Shown here piece after piece: positions 13,601 to 20,002 of a stretch of DNA of 64,000 nt. Numbering within the stretch: position 1 is the first letter of the stretch; the number at the start of each line of letters is the position of its first letter. The translations under genes and the position numbers were made by a program. Under the pieces are notes generated by a model. That model was given only the letters and a program-made list of their open reading frames with translations, had not been told where the DNA came from and searched no databases. The DNA comes from an uncultured Bacteriovoracaceae bacterium (GTDB lineage: Bacteria > Bdellovibrionota > Bacteriovoracia > Bacteriovoracales > Bacteriovoracaceae): NCBI GenBank assembly GCA_937923325.1, contig CAKZUQ010000003.1:1-64000 (forward strand). Reading direction: 5' to 3'.

Positions 13601-14221
13601 ATGAAATTTTGGATTTTATTTACATTAATATGTACTGCAAATATATCTATAGCAGCTACTTGTAGTGCTACTGAGAACTCTAGTACAAATTCACTTAGCA
13701 ACCTTATTGCTTTTGCAAATGATAGTTTAGCTGCTACAGATGAATTAGACACTACTTTCAAATTATCTGACATAGATATCAAAAGGATTTGCTTTAAAAC
13801 AGACCTAGCTAAAAACGCTGAAAAAAACCCTTACGAAGTCTTTAAAGTAGAACTAGAAAAAGCACTAAAAAAGAGACAAGTAACATTTAACAATATTGAA
13901 GTCTATATATCTAAAAATCTAAGCAAGATACAATGCTCTACGAGAGATACTATAAAAGTTCGTAACTCAAGTTCAATATTTAAACATGCAATCAATTCAA
14001 AAAATTATGCTTTAGTTGAAGAAGCTATTCTTATAAGAGTTAATGGCAAGACTGTATGTAATCCAAATATTGATTTCATGCAATCTGAGTTGATTGATGG
14101 AAAAAAAGAAACCTTAATAAATTTTATAGATAATGTTCTAAGTGATAATGAACTAAATGGAATATATCACTTTGAATCGATAGAGAATATTCGTTCAATG
14201 ATTTATAGTTGTAACAATTGA
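13601..14221 (+). CDS. Secreted protein of unknown function, 206 residues
   Basis: A signal peptide (MKFWILFTLICTANISIAA) is followed by a Cys-containing mature part. The start is preceded by AGGAAA at a good distance. I do not recognise a family. The segment SIFKHAINSKNYALVEEAI with a later ETLINFIDN loosely recalls degenerate ankyrin repeats, but this is weak. Its stop codon overlaps the TTG start of the next secreted protein (TTGA), so the two are made together and may act together in the periplasm or outside the cell. Confidence 0.75.
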   Translation: MKFWILFTLICTANISIAATCSATENSSTNSLSNLIAFANDSLAATDELDTTFKLSDIDIKRICFKTDLAKNAEKNPYEVFKVELEKALKKRQVTFNNIEVYISKNLSKIQCSTRDTIKVRNSSSIFKHAINSKNYALVEEAILIRVNGKTVCNPNIDFMQSELIDGKKETLINFIDNVLSDNELNGIYHFESIENIRSMIYSCNN

Positions 14222-16860
14222 AGTTAATTTCACTTATCCTATTTACAAGTACACTCTACGCTGAATGCTACAATCCAGTTTTAAAGAAATATTTTTCTAA
14301 TTCTATAGTTTCAGAACTAGCTCAGTGTAATGTTTCAACAATAAAAGATTCAAATTTATCGTCATTTTGTGACTGTCAAAAAAAAATAAAATCACCTAAA
14401 AGCTCTACTAAAGAAATCATTTCTTCACATAATAAAATTCTAGCAAATGCATTTGAGTCTAGATTTAACATAGCAATTGCTTCTATTGCAAATGACTTAG
14501 ATACAATTGAAGCCTTCAATATAAATTCCTCTGAAAAGAAAGCTTTAGCTGAAAGTTGTAATATCGAAAAACAACTTCAAAAAAGTGGTCCCAACGGAGA
14601 AATGTTAGAGAAGTGTTACAAGAATGAGAATACTTTTTCTTCCTTATTTGGTGGAGTTGAATCATTCTCAGGGAAGACGATAGCTCGCTTCGATAATATT
14701 TTCAAAATTAGGTCTCAAAAACATCGTAACGTTACAGGGTCTCAAGAAAGTTGCACACCTTTTTCTAGCCCCAAGCCTTTTGTCGATCGATGTGAATCGA
14801 AATATGAAGCTAGTTGTGAAATCCCAGACAAACTTACTAATGAGGTTCACAATAGAAAGCTACTCAAAGACTTAAAAAGCTTGATTAAATTTGCCAGAAA
14901 AACAGGAACAACAGTGTTTGACAAGAGCATGACACTTGCCGATCAGCTAACTGACACAATATTTTCACATGAAAAAAACCTAGATGCGAGAATATCTAAA
15001 CTTGAGGAGCTTAACAAAGACCCTATTTTTGGAAAGATTCTTAATTCCAAAGACACAATACCTCTACTAAACTCAACATCCGAAAAAGATGATGAATTAT
15101 CATTGTTTCATTTTCAATCCTCACTAAAAAATAGCAATATCGAAAATATTAAAAAAAAGTGTAACACTTCATTTAAGGAAGCTATTGCATTTCTTTGTAA
15201 AGAGGTTCCCTCTTCAAAGACATCTAATTTAAACTTACCCATACCAGAACTTCGACATGAACTTTCTAATATAAAGAATAGTAGTTACTCTTTTTTAGCA
15301 TCAAAGTATTATTGTAAAAGACAAGATAAAAACGATCAGAATGTTAATCCTTTTAAAAGTCTAGAGGACGTTTTACACCCACAAGATCGCGTATCGAGGT
15401 CACCTGAAGAGCTTGCTGGTAACACATACTCAAATCAAACGAAAAAATCTAGAGATTACCTTTGTTCTAATTTTTATGGACGAGTTAATAAAAAAGCGAA
15501 GAAACTTGGACTAAAGCAAGAGAACCTTACTGATCCAGATGATCAATTTAAACTTTATAGCTTCCAGTTAAAAGAATATAGTAAAATTTTAGAGGAACAA
15601 TGCCCTAATGGTAAGTTTTCTGAGAAGTGTTCTTATCTTGTTGAATTAGTGAGTATAACAGAGAAAAATCGTGAAATAGCTATAAATAACCAAAAAACAA
15701 AGGCTAAAGATATTCAAGAAGCAAAAGATAAAGGTATCAAATATGTAAACAAAGGTTATCTTGTAGAAAATACAAGTTTAGCAGAATCTATTTTAACTAG
15801 AAAATTGACTACTCCAACTAAAAAGAAAAGTAGCGAGAAGAAATCTGAAGAAACTAAGTCTAATGAAAAAGACGAAGATCAAACTTCTAAAGAAGTAAAA
15901 CAAAGCCCTAAGGTAACTTTCAGTTCTAGCTCAAGTAGCTCTATTAATAACTCTATAGAACCAATTCAAAATACAACTTTAGCATTTAGTAGTTCTCCTA
16001 CAAACCAAGTTGAGACTTCCTCAAGTAATTTAATTCTTAATTCATCAAATAGTCCAAGTCAAAAATACTGGGAAGAGAGATCTAAAAGAATAGATGAAGA
16101 CATTAAAAAAGCTCAAGAATATTTAAATAATTTAACTGAACCTGAAAAGAAGGCAAGAGAAGAACGTATCAAAGAAGCTAAGTTTGATCAGGCTACTAGA
16201 ACTTTAACTAAGGCGTTAAAACCGACTGACTATATTCAGGAACAAAGACACATCAATCAACATACCCTTCAAGATGAGGGTCGAATTCCTACGTCTACAA
16301 AAATTAAAAACCCTACAACTCATGACTTAAGAAAGCTAGAAAACAAAATTTTGAATGAGACTATTAATAGTGGGGTTATCAATACAAATGATAGAGTTGA
16401 ACTCAGTAAATTTGAACCGACTCAGTCTGGACTTATTAACAAACACAAACTTGTAGATAAAGACGGAAATGTATTATCAATAACAGAAGTAAAAATAAAA
16501 GGATCAATTGAAGAAGACTTTACTAAAGTTTTAGAAAAAGATGATGAGAAAAATCTTACAAAAGATAGAAAGATGATTTTAGCTAACCCTTCTCAAGATT
16601 CTCATTTTAAGAACTTGGCTAAGGCTCTATCTAAAAAAGAAACTTTCCTAATATCTAGATATGACAATGAAGATATTAAATTAATTGTAAAATATAATCA
16701 CAAACAAAAGAAATATTCAGTTGAACCATATGCAGACAGAGAAAGACTAAAAATCTATGAACAAGATTACTTAGAGTTTCAAAAGAATATATCAAACGCT
16801 ATATCTGACAAAACTTTTAATACTCTTATGAAGAAATACAAAACGAAAGAGCTTGAATAA
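14218..16860 (+). CDS. Large secreted Cys- and Ser-rich protein, unknown
   Basis: This 880-residue protein starts with TTG at 14218, overlapping the previous stop by 4 bases, which implies translational coupling. The signal peptide is MKLISLILFTSTLYA. The N-terminal half has many cysteines and likely disulphides. Residues about 535-610 are low complexity, first Lys/Glu-rich and then with runs of serine, and look disordered. The C-terminal third (after KYWEERSKRIDE near 620) is charged and helical, then more ordered (KLVDKDGNVLSITEVK). I recognise no catalytic motif. It is accessory in character and could be a secreted factor acting with its 206-residue partner. Confidence 0.75.
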   Translation: MKLISLILFTSTLYAECYNPVLKKYFSNSIVSELAQCNVSTIKDSNLSSFCDCQKKIKSPKSSTKEIISSHNKILANAFESRFNIAIASIANDLDTIEAFNINSSEKKALAESCNIEKQLQKSGPNGEMLEKCYKNENTFSSLFGGVESFSGKTIARFDNIFKIRSQKHRNVTGSQESCTPFSSPKPFVDRCESKYEASCEIPDKLTNEVHNRKLLKDLKSLIKFARKTGTTVFDKSMTLADQLTDTIFSHEKNLDARISKLEELNKDPIFGKILNSKDTIPLLNSTSEKDDELSLFHFQSSLKNSNIENIKKKCNTSFKEAIAFLCKEVPSSKTSNLNLPIPELRHELSNIKNSSYSFLASKYYCKRQDKNDQNVNPFKSLEDVLHPQDRVSRSPEELAGNTYSNQTKKSRDYLCSNFYGRVNKKAKKLGLKQENLTDPDDQFKLYSFQLKEYSKILEEQCPNGKFSEKCSYLVELVSITEKNREIAINNQKTKAKDIQEAKDKGIKYVNKGYLVENTSLAESILTRKLTTPTKKKSSEKKSEETKSNEKDEDQTSKEVKQSPKVTFSSSSSSSINNSIEPIQNTTLAFSSSPTNQVETSSSNLILNSSNSPSQKYWEERSKRIDEDIKKAQEYLNNLTEPEKKAREERIKEAKFDQATRTLTKALKPTDYIQEQRHINQHTLQDEGRIPTSTKIKNPTTHDLRKLENKILNETINSGVINTNDRVELSKFEPTQSGLINKHKLVDKDGNVLSITEVKIKGSIEEDFTKVLEKDDEKNLTKDRKMILANPSQDSHFKNLAKALSKKETFLISRYDNEDIKLIVKYNHKQKKYSVEPYADRERLKIYEQDYLEFQKNISNAISDKTFNTLMKKYKTKELE

Positions 16861-16863
16861 ACT

Positions 16864-17688
16864 CTATTTTTTGCGTCCAACGATGTTTTCTATATTTCTT
16901 GCGATTAGATTTACTTTATTTAGCTCATCACCCTTACGTATTTGAAACTTTCTATGTTTTCCACATTTCAAATCTTCAACATATAAGTGAAGACCATGCA
17001 GTGGCCCAAATACTTTTGATGATAAATATAGACCAAATGGAAAGCTGATTAGTATCAAAATAACACTTATCAATATATATAAGGTTAAAAAAGTTGTAGT
17101 GATACCCTTTGAATTTAATATCACAGGCGAGATATAAGTTATCAAAAATGTATAAGATAAAGTGCCTAGTATTAGTGAACTACCAAAAACAAAAAATGAT
17201 ACTTTTCTTGCGTACTTAATCTGCGCTTTTGGCTCAATTAAATTAAACTTCCTCATATCTTGTTTTGAAAATATTACTTGTTTTCCAAAGAACACAACAA
17301 AATTTATACCGATGACACCCACAAATATATAAATATCAGCTGTATTAAATGAGCTTGAAAAAGCAGGAATAAAATCTATTGTAAATCCCTTTACAATTTT
17401 ATCAATTGTATTTGAACAAATACCAGCAATAAAAAAACTTAAAAATGTCTTTAAGTATTTTGCTTCTTTTGATAAAGAAGTTATCAAGGCAACAAAGATT
17501 AAAAATAAAAACGAACTATAAGTACCTAAAAAAATGATCTTTATATGTGAAGGCATGCTCTCAAACATATTCAAGAACATTCCTTTATTTATAATGTACT
17601 GTCCTTTTTGAACAAACACTTTTTTTAAGACCTGATCAAAAGTTATCAGGCCGATTAAAAGTGAAAAGAAGGCAGCAAAAGTTTTCAT
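16864..17688 (-). CDS. Signal peptidase II (LspA) fused to a HAMP-like region
   Basis: Residues 1-135 are a full LspA: DQVLK (Asp18, Lys22) in the first membrane helix, NKGMF at 34-38, NTID with Asp96, VKGFTIDFIP, and FNTAD with Asp118. Asp96 and Asp118 match the catalytic pair that cleaves prolipoproteins within the membrane. LspA is normally about 160 residues; this one has 274. The extra part adds two membrane helices (near 165-190 and 200-222) and a HAMP-like linker (SKVFGPLHGLHLYVEDL, then RKGDE near 251-255). HAMP regions usually pass signals across membranes, so activity might be regulated. The start overlaps the stop of the 701-residue putative lipoprotein gene (TAATG), pointing to a dedicated enzyme-substrate pair. 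It ends 3 bases from the convergent 880-residue gene. Confidence 0.8.
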   Translation of the reverse strand: MKTFAAFFSLLIGLITFDQVLKKVFVQKGQYIINKGMFLNMFESMPSHIKIIFLGTYSSFLFLIFVALITSLSKEAKYLKTFLSFFIAGICSNTIDKIVKGFTIDFIPAFSSSFNTADIYIFVGVIGINFVVFFGKQVIFSKQDMRKFNLIEPKAQIKYARKVSFFVFGSSLILGTLSYTFLITYISPVILNSKGITTTFLTLYILISVILILISFPFGLYLSSKVFGPLHGLHLYVEDLKCGKHRKFQIRKGDELNKVNLIARNIENIVGRKK

Positions 17689-19793
17689 TAGTTCATAAAT
17701 ACCGGATCAGCTGGCAATGACTCGTCTTCATATACTTTGTTGTTATGAAGAATTCTATATTTCTTTGAGTTAGATATGCTCTCTCTATAAGGTAAAGATC
17801 TTTCTAGAAAGTGAAATGGCCTTGCTTTAAAGTATATATCAACTAAAATTCTAAAATTAGCTTTTTTATCATCTTCAGTTTTTCCAAAGATTAACTGATG
17901 TAAAATTTCTTCTTCTGTGTATTCTTTTTGACTTTCATTATATAAAAATGCACTTCTTAAAGTTGTATTATTACCATATTGGTCATATTCAGTTATCAAG
18001 CTATTTGAAGTAATACATGTATTAATAGCAAGTACTCCCTGATCCTTTAGACTTGATAATTCTCCATCCTCAATTGTCCCGTTTATGTTTTTATCTATCC
18101 ATATCTTAAGTGTTTTATATTCTGCACTCCATGGACCAATATATCTATCCTTCACTTCCTGCCTAATAATCTCTAATTGCTCTTCTGATGGAGTTCCTTC
18201 ATAGTACAACTGTTGAACTGGTGTTTTACATGCTAGTTCTTTACCCACAAAGTCTTGAAGGGCGGTAAACCCATTATCATACTTTTTCTCAGGCGCATTA
18301 GGGTTCTTAAACTCAGAACCAAATAAATGAACGCTAGTAACTTCACCTTCACTTGGTGGCAAGATTAAGAATCCATCATCTGCTACTCTTTGCCACATAT
18401 AATCTTTTGGAGATATTATTCCAGTCGTTGAAGTATCTGCTAATTCTATTGATTGAACTTTTTGAATTCTTCCTCCAAGCCAAGCACTTCTGTGTGAGTA
18501 ACTATTTTCTGAACTTGTATTTACTAATGACTCATCATTTTCTGTTATTGATGCGTTAGCTAGATTAAAAAACACCCCCCAAAATTCACTTGTTGTTCTT
18601 AGGTATGGCCTTCCCAAATCTAATACTATCGGTGTATATCTTGCTGAGATAACTCTAGAGTTTCCAACGTCACAATTCATTCTTTGTAAAACTTGAGGTA
18701 TTCCTTCATAGGCCTTATAAGTTGCTGTATAGCTTTTATTTTTTACTGTACGTTCACTGGATAAATATCCCGATATTTTTTGTCTTTTCCTGAAAATACT
18801 TTTTAAGTTGAAGATATCTTTTAATCTTCTTTCAACATCTTTATTTCTTCCAACGCTTGCAACATCTGAATACATAATTTCAATGTCATTATTTGTCGAT
18901 AGAATTTCTGTTCTTAAGTCGGCCAAATAAATTTTTCCAATCGGAAATTCCTCACTTGGATTTGCTGTTGCATATTCTGCAATATCAGATACCGCTCTAA
19001 GACCAGAGCCAGTCTTATGCATATTGTATGCATTCCATGCAGAAAATGGATTACCACTAGCAAAAGACGTATAGTTTCTATAATTTGATTTAACTTTAGT
19101 ATCTACAGTTACAATAGAGAAATACTGCATTTTACCTTCTAAAAATTCTGACTTTGCAGTCACTGTATCAACCTTATATGTCTTATTTGATGTTTCAAGA
19201 TAACCTTTACCTGAATGATCCTCTCTTAAGATTGATCTTACATAGGCCATATAAGAGATTTTATCGTGCTTATCTCCAGTTGAAAGAGAATATTCCACAG
19301 GAACAATTAGTGGTAAATTTTCACCTTCGTTAATCTTTTTAAGCCTTTCAACTGCTAATCTTTGAACGTATTTCTTTTCAATTTCATAGGCTGAGTGCAT
19401 ATCACTATATTCTGTGGCGTCATCATCTTGAATAATACTTGTAAGTGCTTTTGCTCTTATATCAAGATCAACTCCTTCTTCAAATTGATTACACCTAGAA
19501 ACCCACTGAAAGTTTTCGGAGTCTTCTTTATAAACATTAATAGGTAAGTAAGAGTCACCTAAATCAAAGTTTGAATCAGATCCATTCCAAAGCATTTCAT
19601 ATAAATCATCATTATCTTCAACCAAATCTGTTAAATTATCTAATTTTTGTGTTGAAAATGCTGTCGCTTCCAATGCTTCTTGTTCTGATTGAGAAGCTCT
19701 GTATAGATGCGCATTTTGCCCACACTGTGTATATATAAGAGTAGTTGAACCAAGTGTTGAGGCCAATAAAAAGATTCTAAGTGCATTTTTCAT
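17688..19793 (-). CDS. Putative lipoprotein with an EF-hand loop
   Basis: The 701-residue protein has a signal sequence (MKNALRIFLLASTLGSTTLIYTQC) ending at a cysteine, but the residues before it (Y-T-Q) do not fit the usual lipobox with a small residue at -1. Residues 567-578 (DKNINGTIEDGE) match all positions of a 12-residue EF-hand calcium loop. The rest looks like a soluble extracytoplasmic protein with no family I can name. It is co-transcribed with the LspA-HAMP gene, whose start overlaps this stop, so it may be the private substrate of that enzyme. A tandem 22-bp repeat lies directly upstream. AGGAAAA precedes the ATG. Confidence 0.75.
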   Translation of the reverse strand: MKNALRIFLLASTLGSTTLIYTQCGQNAHLYRASQSEQEALEATAFSTQKLDNLTDLVEDNDDLYEMLWNGSDSNFDLGDSYLPINVYKEDSENFQWVSRCNQFEEGVDLDIRAKALTSIIQDDDATEYSDMHSAYEIEKKYVQRLAVERLKKINEGENLPLIVPVEYSLSTGDKHDKISYMAYVRSILREDHSGKGYLETSNKTYKVDTVTAKSEFLEGKMQYFSIVTVDTKVKSNYRNYTSFASGNPFSAWNAYNMHKTGSGLRAVSDIAEYATANPSEEFPIGKIYLADLRTEILSTNNDIEIMYSDVASVGRNKDVERRLKDIFNLKSIFRKRQKISGYLSSERTVKNKSYTATYKAYEGIPQVLQRMNCDVGNSRVISARYTPIVLDLGRPYLRTTSEFWGVFFNLANASITENDESLVNTSSENSYSHRSAWLGGRIQKVQSIELADTSTTGIISPKDYMWQRVADDGFLILPPSEGEVTSVHLFGSEFKNPNAPEKKYDNGFTALQDFVGKELACKTPVQQLYYEGTPSEEQLEIIRQEVKDRYIGPWSAEYKTLKIWIDKNINGTIEDGELSSLKDQGVLAINTCITSNSLITEYDQYGNNTTLRSAFLYNESQKEYTEEEILHQLIFGKTEDDKKANFRILVDIYFKARPFHFLERSLPYRESISNSKKYRILHNNKVYEDESLPADPVFMN

Positions 19794-19802
19794 GAATTTT
19801 CC

Positions 19803-19854
19803 TATATTTTATTAATTTAAGAACTATATTTTATTAATTTAAGAACTATATTTT
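19803..19854. repeat. Tandem 22-bp direct repeat in a 5' leader
   Basis: Two exact copies (19803-19824 and 19825-19846) are followed by an 8-base partial third copy. The repeat begins 9 bases upstream of the start codon of the 701-residue gene on the minus strand, so it lies in its leader or promoter. Each copy contains AT-rich, -10-like sequence. It is a local duplication, not a CRISPR array. Confidence 0.8.
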
Positions 19855-19889: not shown

Positions 19890-19984
19890 ACTGATTTTTA
19901 CATCAATAGATACCAAACTTTCCCAATCTATTTTTCAAATAAATTATATTGTTTTTCTTTAACTTTTTTAAACAAAAAAAAAAA

Positions 19985-20002
19985 CCTATTCAATTGAATA
20001 GG
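19985..20002 (-). terminator. Rho-independent terminator after ftsZ
   Basis: CCTATTCAATTGAATAGG is a perfect palindrome that can form a 7-8 bp stem. On the minus strand it is followed by a long T-run and preceded by an A-run, starting 27 bases after the ftsZ stop. It closes the dcw operon. The flanking runs make it potentially bidirectional. Confidence 0.9.

What the first reader, a model, noticed from the sequence alone, without database searches (positions are those of the whole stretch)
16864..19793. LspA-HAMP fusion paired with a lipoprotein that has an odd lipobox
Seen: a complete LspA catalytic set (Asp18, Asn34, Asp96, Asp118) is fused to two extra membrane helices and a HAMP-like region, giving 274 residues where about 160 is usual. 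Its start codon overlaps the stop of a 701-residue exported protein whose signal ends Y-T-Q-C, with Gln at -1 where Gly, Ala or Ser is normal, and which has a perfect EF-hand loop. Known: LspA cleaves before the lipobox Cys; HAMP regions relay signals. Inference: a dedicated and perhaps regulated signal peptidase for one unusual substrate.
Basis: partly seen in the sequence, partly recalled or inferred. Interest (0 to 1): 0.75.

Follow-up and report, generated by a model that had tools for sequence, protein, structure and literature searches.

The report
Second signal peptidase for unusual lipoproteins
A spare copy of the enzyme that trims bacterial lipoproteins carries an extra membrane-and-HAMP-like tail and travels with proteins whose trimming signal breaks the usual rule, which suggests that these bacteria run a second, separate lipoprotein-processing line.

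Summary
In detail: a 274-aa LspA with its catalytic residues intact carries two extra helices and a HAMP-like end, and its ATG overlaps the stop codon of a 701-aa exported protein with signal Y-T-Q-C. The fusion is a widespread LspA paralogue of Bdellovibrionota. In relatives it adjoins unrelated proteins that share only a signal ending [YF]-x-[QNH]-C. That motif occurs in 32 of 247 genes within 6 kb of the fusion, 0 of 137 further away and 0 of 1,493 in random regions. One three-gene cassette has the odd motif in 27 of 27 copies linked to the fusion; 20 of 29 unlinked copies have ordinary lipoboxes. Next to a catalytic Asp the linked enzymes have T/S/A where substrates have mostly Gln or His at -1 (42 of 44), and Val where they have Asn (6 of 6). 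Best reading: an orthogonal signal peptidase II with its own lipobox code, of which the window pair is one instance. Pairing with the 701-aa family is not conserved; HAMP regulation is untested. Against: few independent events, three draft genomes with the odd motif but no detected fusion, no biochemistry.

The parts
16864..17688 (-). LspA-HAMP fusion gene, 274 aa
17278..17688 (-). LspA part, about residues 1-137, four membrane helices, fold of solved LspA
17374..17382 (-). Thr103-Ile104-Asp105: catalytic Asp105 and, two before it, Thr in place of the usual Val
17335..17337 (-). catalytic Asp118
16867..17253 (-). two extra membrane helices and HAMP-like end, residues 146-274
17688..19793 (-). 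701-aa exported protein, presumed lipoprotein substrate, family PF26745 (precomputed label)
19722..19733 (-). odd lipobox Tyr-Thr-Gln-Cys, residues 21-24
18060..18095 (-). EF-hand-type loop, residues 567-578
19974..20002 (.). palindrome with T-runs between ftsZ and the pair, terminator-like
   Evidence: read, listed, whose number of such sites is not above shuffles

Best explanation
LspA-HAMP is a second signal peptidase II that matures a separate class of lipoproteins whose lipobox reads aromatic-polar-polar-Cys. Shown by sequence: an intact LspA active site, special neighbours, and covariation of one active-site residue with the -1 residue. Inferred: the precursors are exported and lipidated on Cys like other lipoproteins; the housekeeping LspA handles Gln, His or Asn at -1 poorly; LspA-HAMP cleaves before the Cys, and Thr, Ser or Ala in place of Val beside the catalytic Asp makes room for larger -1 residues. 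The HAMP-like end probably holds the enzyme as a dimer or couples it to a partner. In the window the co-translated 701-aa calcium-binding-type protein is the substrate.
For: Motif only near the fusion: 32 of 247 genes within 6 kb, 0 of 137 further off in the same sources (43 of these 137 are from the window), 0 of 738 and 0 of 755 genes in random regions of genomes without and with it. The 701-aa, Lipo1 and Lipo2 families align with each other only over 24-33 signal positions. Cassette copies linked to the fusion: 27 of 27 odd; unlinked: 9 odd, 20 ordinary (Fisher 1.4e-8). TatP orthologues: 34 of 58 genomes with the fusion, 1 of 71 without. -1 residue in cis: T/S/A enzymes Q 22, H 20, N 2; V enzymes N 6. 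The 25 ordinary standalone LspA in the tree all have Val there.
Against: Cassette copies are related: the odd/ordinary split needs only 2 changes on the TatP tree, and T/S/A among fusions 3 changes, so the Fisher values overstate independence. G001, G002 and G093 have an odd lipobox but no detected fusion. In Bdellovibrionia-like genomes with the fusion the domain proteins are odd in 12 and ordinary in 9 of 21 readable cases, and the fusion had no odd neighbour among three genes on either side in 10 of 10 loci. 4 of 20 loci show no odd protein near the fusion. No lipidation or cleavage has been measured.
Confidence: 0.72

Rival explanations
1. The housekeeping LspA matures the odd lipoboxes too; LspA-HAMP is an extra copy kept for dosage or as a spare enzyme against LspA-targeting antibiotics, and the linkage is historical.
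For: Few independent events; odd lipoboxes in G001, G002 and G093 without a detected fusion; a lipoprotein with lipobox FLNC is reported from Chryseobacterium (PMC10920655, passages); antibiotic producers carry extra lspA genes (PMC8689077, passages).
Against: Unlinked copies of the same cassette mostly have ordinary lipoboxes; second copies inside genomes with the fusion are ordinary in 7 cases and odd in 1; active-site residue and -1 residue covary.
Confidence: 0.15
2. The odd motif is not a lipobox: the hydrophobic stretch is an uncleaved anchor or is cut by signal peptidase I, and the Cys serves a disulfide or another modification.
For: Both -3 and -1 break the lipobox consensus; no biochemical data.
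Against: Cys sits right at the end of the hydrophobic stretch in unrelated proteins and is followed by a low-complexity linker in many; homologous cassette proteins have an ordinary lipobox at the same place; the neighbour is a signal peptidase II.
Confidence: 0.08
3. LspA-HAMP is above all a regulated or signalling protein: the HAMP-like end senses the membrane or a partner and switches the peptidase or reports on it.
For: HAMP-like fold and relatives; stand-alone membrane-HAMP-like proteins match the C-terminal part in many of the same genomes; fusions with further domains exist.
Against: Only about six residues lie between the two extra helices and no output domain follows in the window protein; this rival does not explain the odd lipobox. 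It can be true together with the best explanation.
Confidence: 0.2

Closest known systems
Signal peptidase II LspA (P. aeruginosa 5DIR; S. aureus 6RYO, 6RYP)
   Same: Family, fold and catalytic residues
   Different: C-terminal helices and HAMP-like end; Val to Thr beside the catalytic Asp; linked to odd lipoboxes
Extra LspA copies of Myxococcus xanthus (PMC8689077, passages)
   Same: LspA paralogues beside a housekeeping function
   Different: Two of them belong to an antibiotic cluster; that passage names no different lipobox
Single proteins with atypical lipoboxes: CIM-1 FLNC (PMC10920655) and Ycf48 CVSC (PMC8038367), passages
   Same: Departure from [LVI][ASTVI][GAS]C; CIM-1 also has Asn at -1
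   Different: The passages seen name no dedicated peptidase; here whole unrelated families share the motif
HAMP regions of sensor kinases and chemoreceptors (WalK 9a5d, NarQ 5jef/5jeq, MCPB 9a69)
   Same: Membrane helix, helix, connector, helix
   Different: No Pfam HAMP hit in the fusion; nothing follows the end in the window protein
Sortase and exosortase systems (recalled)
   Same: Works like them in logic: an enzyme gene next to substrates that share only a short sorting signal
   Different: Unrelated enzymes and chemistry; not a member

Membership tests
Signal peptidase II (LspA, Peptidase_A8) | Pfam PF01252 over cut-off | tested here: met
   52.3 bits, cut-off 25; 24 of 24 alignment members match
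Signal peptidase II (LspA, Peptidase_A8) | Catalytic dyad and conserved residues | tested here: met
   Asp105 and Asp118 present; 12 of 14 residues listed in PMC6952399 kept
Signal peptidase II (LspA, Peptidase_A8) | Fold of solved LspA | tested here: met
Signal peptidase II (LspA, Peptidase_A8) | Cleaves before lipidated Cys | not testable with these tools
   no biochemistry
HAMP domain | Match to a HAMP profile | tested here: not met
   no Pfam HAMP hit at E<=5 in 24 members; weak link through relatives. Filed as HAMP-like only
HAMP domain | Membrane helix, helix, connector, helix | tested here: inconclusive
Canonical lipobox [LVI][ASTVI][GAS]C | -3 and -1 residues | tested here: not met
   Tyr at -3 and Gln at -1
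Lipoprotein | Positively charged start, hydrophobic stretch, Cys at its end | tested here: met
Lipoprotein | Lipidated N-terminal Cys | not testable with these tools
   needs mass spectrometry
FrpC-type self-processing module (701-aa protein) | Fold | tested here: inconclusive
   Foldseek 6sjx E 1.2e-7, prob 1.00, TM by target 0.71, but rmsd 7.2; aligned range not shown
FrpC-type self-processing module (701-aa protein) | Asp-Pro bond that is cleaved (recalled) | not tested
   a conserved YTP stands at 386-388; that it is the equivalent place is only a guess

The most novel reading that the evidence does not exclude
A two-track lipoprotein system with a readable code: an orthogonal signal peptidase II in which one active-site residue sets the -1 residue of its private lipobox (Val with Asn; Thr, Ser or Ala with Gln or His), so that a bacterium can mark a small group of envelope proteins for separate, possibly HAMP-controlled maturation.
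Probability: 0.45. Interest if true: 0.88.

Novelty: new variant of a known kind. Interest (0 to 1): 0.8.

Why it matters
LspA is commonly treated as one general enzyme that reads one lipobox. A paralogue with its own lipobox code would mean that consensus-based predictors miss sets of lipoproteins, would offer a natural experiment on the specificity of an antibiotic target, and would raise the question why these bacteria mature some CxxCH and calcium-binding-type envelope proteins on a separate line.

Tried and rejected
Exclusive partnership of the fusion with the 701-aa protein: rejected. In 368 genomes the long 701-aa family was found in 14 genomes (15 matches with E<=1.9e-104, two in G002), never near the fusion by the coordinates given (in G004 the contigs are too short to tell), and G001, G002 and G008 show no full-length fusion. 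That the closest relatives keep the pair is only suggested: P0003 and P0006 both name a longest contig of 4,995 bases.

A genome-wide odd lipobox in these bacteria: rejected. Lipoprotein-like signals have Q, N or H at -1 in 1 of 45 (random regions, genomes without the fusion) and 0 of 31 (with it), against 31 of 46 in 19 fusion loci. With any residue allowed at -3 a later script found 2 odd and 44 ordinary against 0 and 44.

A degenerate DNA pattern for the broader motif gave about 3 hits per Mb by chance. The third protein search (A4) listed 14 proteins and did not settle what lies beside P0007-P0013. Answered paper searches that listed no LspA-HAMP fusion or dedicated peptidase for odd lipoboxes: (open-licence PubMed Central; listings, plus passages of five papers). 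Promoter-like sites near the pair are no more than in shuffles.

Rows dropped: the second cassette of G075 (L275, unclear N-terminus) and G037 (adjacent FNQC protein not recognised as Lipo1 or Lipo2) from the cassette count; one fragment (L170) from the LspA tree; identical sequences counted once; genes under 80 aa. In one search four proteins whose signal the script could not read are left out and four with VVGC were read by eye. My notes say 35 of 36 for TatP; recounted it is 34 of 35. A first count of linked cassettes (17, used for a Fisher value) was completed to 27 with ten loci read only in short flanks.

Full report
WHAT IS THERE. On the minus strand a 701-aa gene (17688-19793) and a 274-aa gene (16864-17688) share one base in TAATG. 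A terminator-like palindrome with T-runs lies between ftsZ and the pair, so the pair may be its own transcription unit (inference). The 274-aa protein is an LspA by Pfam and by fold, with both catalytic Asp residues and 12 of the 14 conserved residues listed for S. aureus LspA. Residues 146-274 add two helices and a HAMP-like end. No Pfam HAMP model matches it; the profile of this part finds stand-alone membrane-HAMP-like proteins and a HAMP-GGDEF protein, some of which match Pfam HAMP models, and the model aligns with WalK, MCPB and NarQ at modest Z. The 701-aa protein has a signal ending YTQC, the precomputed family label PF26745 and an EF-hand loop. Foldseek matches its model (mean pLDDT 77.5) to the calcium-bound self-processing module of FrpC; the aligned range is not shown, so that the EF-hand loop belongs to this part is an inference.

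THE FUSION IS A PARALOGUE OF THE PHYLUM. No genome is held for the window; its relatives place it with Bdellovibrionota (inference). In eight such genomes PF01252 gives one to three copies each. In G003 one copy lies between ileS-like and lgt-like genes by my reading, and another is the fusion. In 368 genomes of the phylum of G003 the fusion profile gives long matches in many genomes; the list of matches was cut. On a tree of 103 LspA domains the 25 ordinary standalone LspA form one clade (SH-aLRT 98) apart from the fusions.

WHAT LIES NEXT TO IT. In that block the fusion often closes an operon: Lipo1 (about 240 aa), a Tat-type protein of about 490 aa (TatP), Lipo2 (430-575 aa with CxxCH), LspA-HAMP, with gaps of -25 to +21 bases where measured. 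Lipo1 and Lipo2 signals end in FNHC, YTQC, YNQC, FTHC and the like. Over 20 sources (19 loci and the window) the motif [YF]x[QNH]C after a hydrophobic stretch occurs in 32 of 247 genes within 6 kb of the fusion and in 0 of 137 further away, 43 of which are from the window; 16 of 20 have at least one, L095, L098, L101 and L103 none. In 80 random regions of the same block it occurs in 0 of 738 genes (40 genomes without the fusion) and 0 of 755 (genomes with it), while ordinary lipoboxes are common. Profile comparison of the 701-aa family, Lipo1 and Lipo2 aligns 24-33 signal positions and nothing else; a few Lipo1 proteins, as in G133, also carry a Lipo2-like domain. Other neighbours with Q, N or H at -1 are a DUF4331-type protein with LQNC in L106 and proteins with YQNC in L145, L152, L155 and L156.

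THE SAME CASSETTE WITHOUT THE FUSION. TatP at E<=3.8e-157 occurs in 35 of 129 genomes, and 34 of these have the fusion; the contig of the exception, G133, ends inside an odd Lipo2 (Fisher for 34 of 58 against 1 of 71: 2.1e-14). I read at least one lipoprotein signal in 56 cassettes. Linked (fusion within 6 kb): 27 of 27 odd, namely 15 loci, G120, G126, and ten read in short flanks: G017, G022, G023, G027, G057, G062, G071, G115, G123, G128. Not linked: 29, of which 7 in genomes with the fusion elsewhere are odd (G039, G041, G042, G044, G088 second copy, G110, G124), 2 without a detected fusion are odd (G133, G093), and 20 are ordinary (TVSC, ISC, TGC and the like): 13 in genomes without the fusion, 7 in genomes with it. 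Fisher 1.4e-8. This overstates the case: the tree of 38 TatP proteins needs only 2 changes, so most of it is one historical event; the window, G120 and G288 are further cases.

ENZYME AND SUBSTRATE COVARY. The LspA residue two before a catalytic Asp is Val in the 25 ordinary standalone LspA; three aberrant short ones have T or A. In 94 different full-length fusions it is V 56, T 25, S 9, A 2, I 1, F 1. Of the 36 with T, S or A, odd lipoboxes were read in the same genome or locus in 33; in the other three (G046, G108, G125) the substrate ends were not fetched. In cis T/S/A enzymes go with Q 22, H 20 and N 2 at -1, V enzymes with N 6 (Fisher 1.8e-6; related sequences). The window group (window, P0002, P0003; Thr; YTQC or FTQC in P0004-P0006) branches apart from the other T/S/A fusions with modest support, which suggests a second instance. 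Val116 of S. [quoted passage not shown]

RESULTS AGAINST. In ten Bdellovibrionia-like loci no odd protein is seen among three genes on either side of the fusion. Proteins with the domain of the 701-aa family there are odd ([YF]QNC) in 12 and ordinary in 9 of 21 readable cases with the fusion; without it two are odd (G001, G002) and two ordinary (G002 second copy, G008). G093 is odd without a detected fusion. These are draft assemblies, so absence is not proven. Of 60 best-match loci with about 1.5-kb flanks, some of them not full fusions, 28 show an odd protein. One fusion (L154, G066) has lost catalytic residues.

MECHANISM. Shown by sequence: intact peptidase, special neighbours, covariation. 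Inferred: lipidation by the common Lgt, cleavage by LspA-HAMP, poor use by the housekeeping LspA, and a role of the HAMP-like end in dimerisation or coupling. What the 701-aa protein does is open; a calcium-binding-type domain suggests an envelope or surface role.

NOVELTY. Seven answered searches of an open-licence library listed no LspA-HAMP fusion and no dedicated peptidase for odd lipoboxes. Atypical lipoboxes of single proteins are known, as are extra lspA genes in Myxococcus. I file it as a new variant of signal peptidase II.

Noticed in passing
L101 8630-10594; L168, L172, L174 (genomes G123-G126): LspA-HAMP continues in one ORF of 650-663 aa; in the related L183 the part after the HAMP-like end resembles the CxxCH protein encoded next to the fusion in other loci.
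   Followed up: partly
L106 8921-10378 (G288): LspA-HAMP followed by an AhpC/TSA domain in one 485-aa ORF, next to a DUF4331-type protein with LQNC.
   Followed up: partly
L154 1495-2400 (G066): A fusion relative that has lost catalytic Asp positions, possibly a pseudoenzyme.
   Followed up: no
L186, L193, L205, L223, L231, L246, L259, L266: Stand-alone membrane-HAMP-like proteins of 185-205 aa, related to the fusion's C-terminal part; possible partners.
   Followed up: partly
window, about 19804-19853: A repeated stretch of about 22 bases just upstream of the 701-aa gene, seen by eye.
   Followed up: no
window 13601-14221 (+) and 14218-16860 (+): Two overlapping genes for exported-looking proteins of 206 and 880 aa, convergent to the pair, without a Pfam match over its cut-off.
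   Followed up: no
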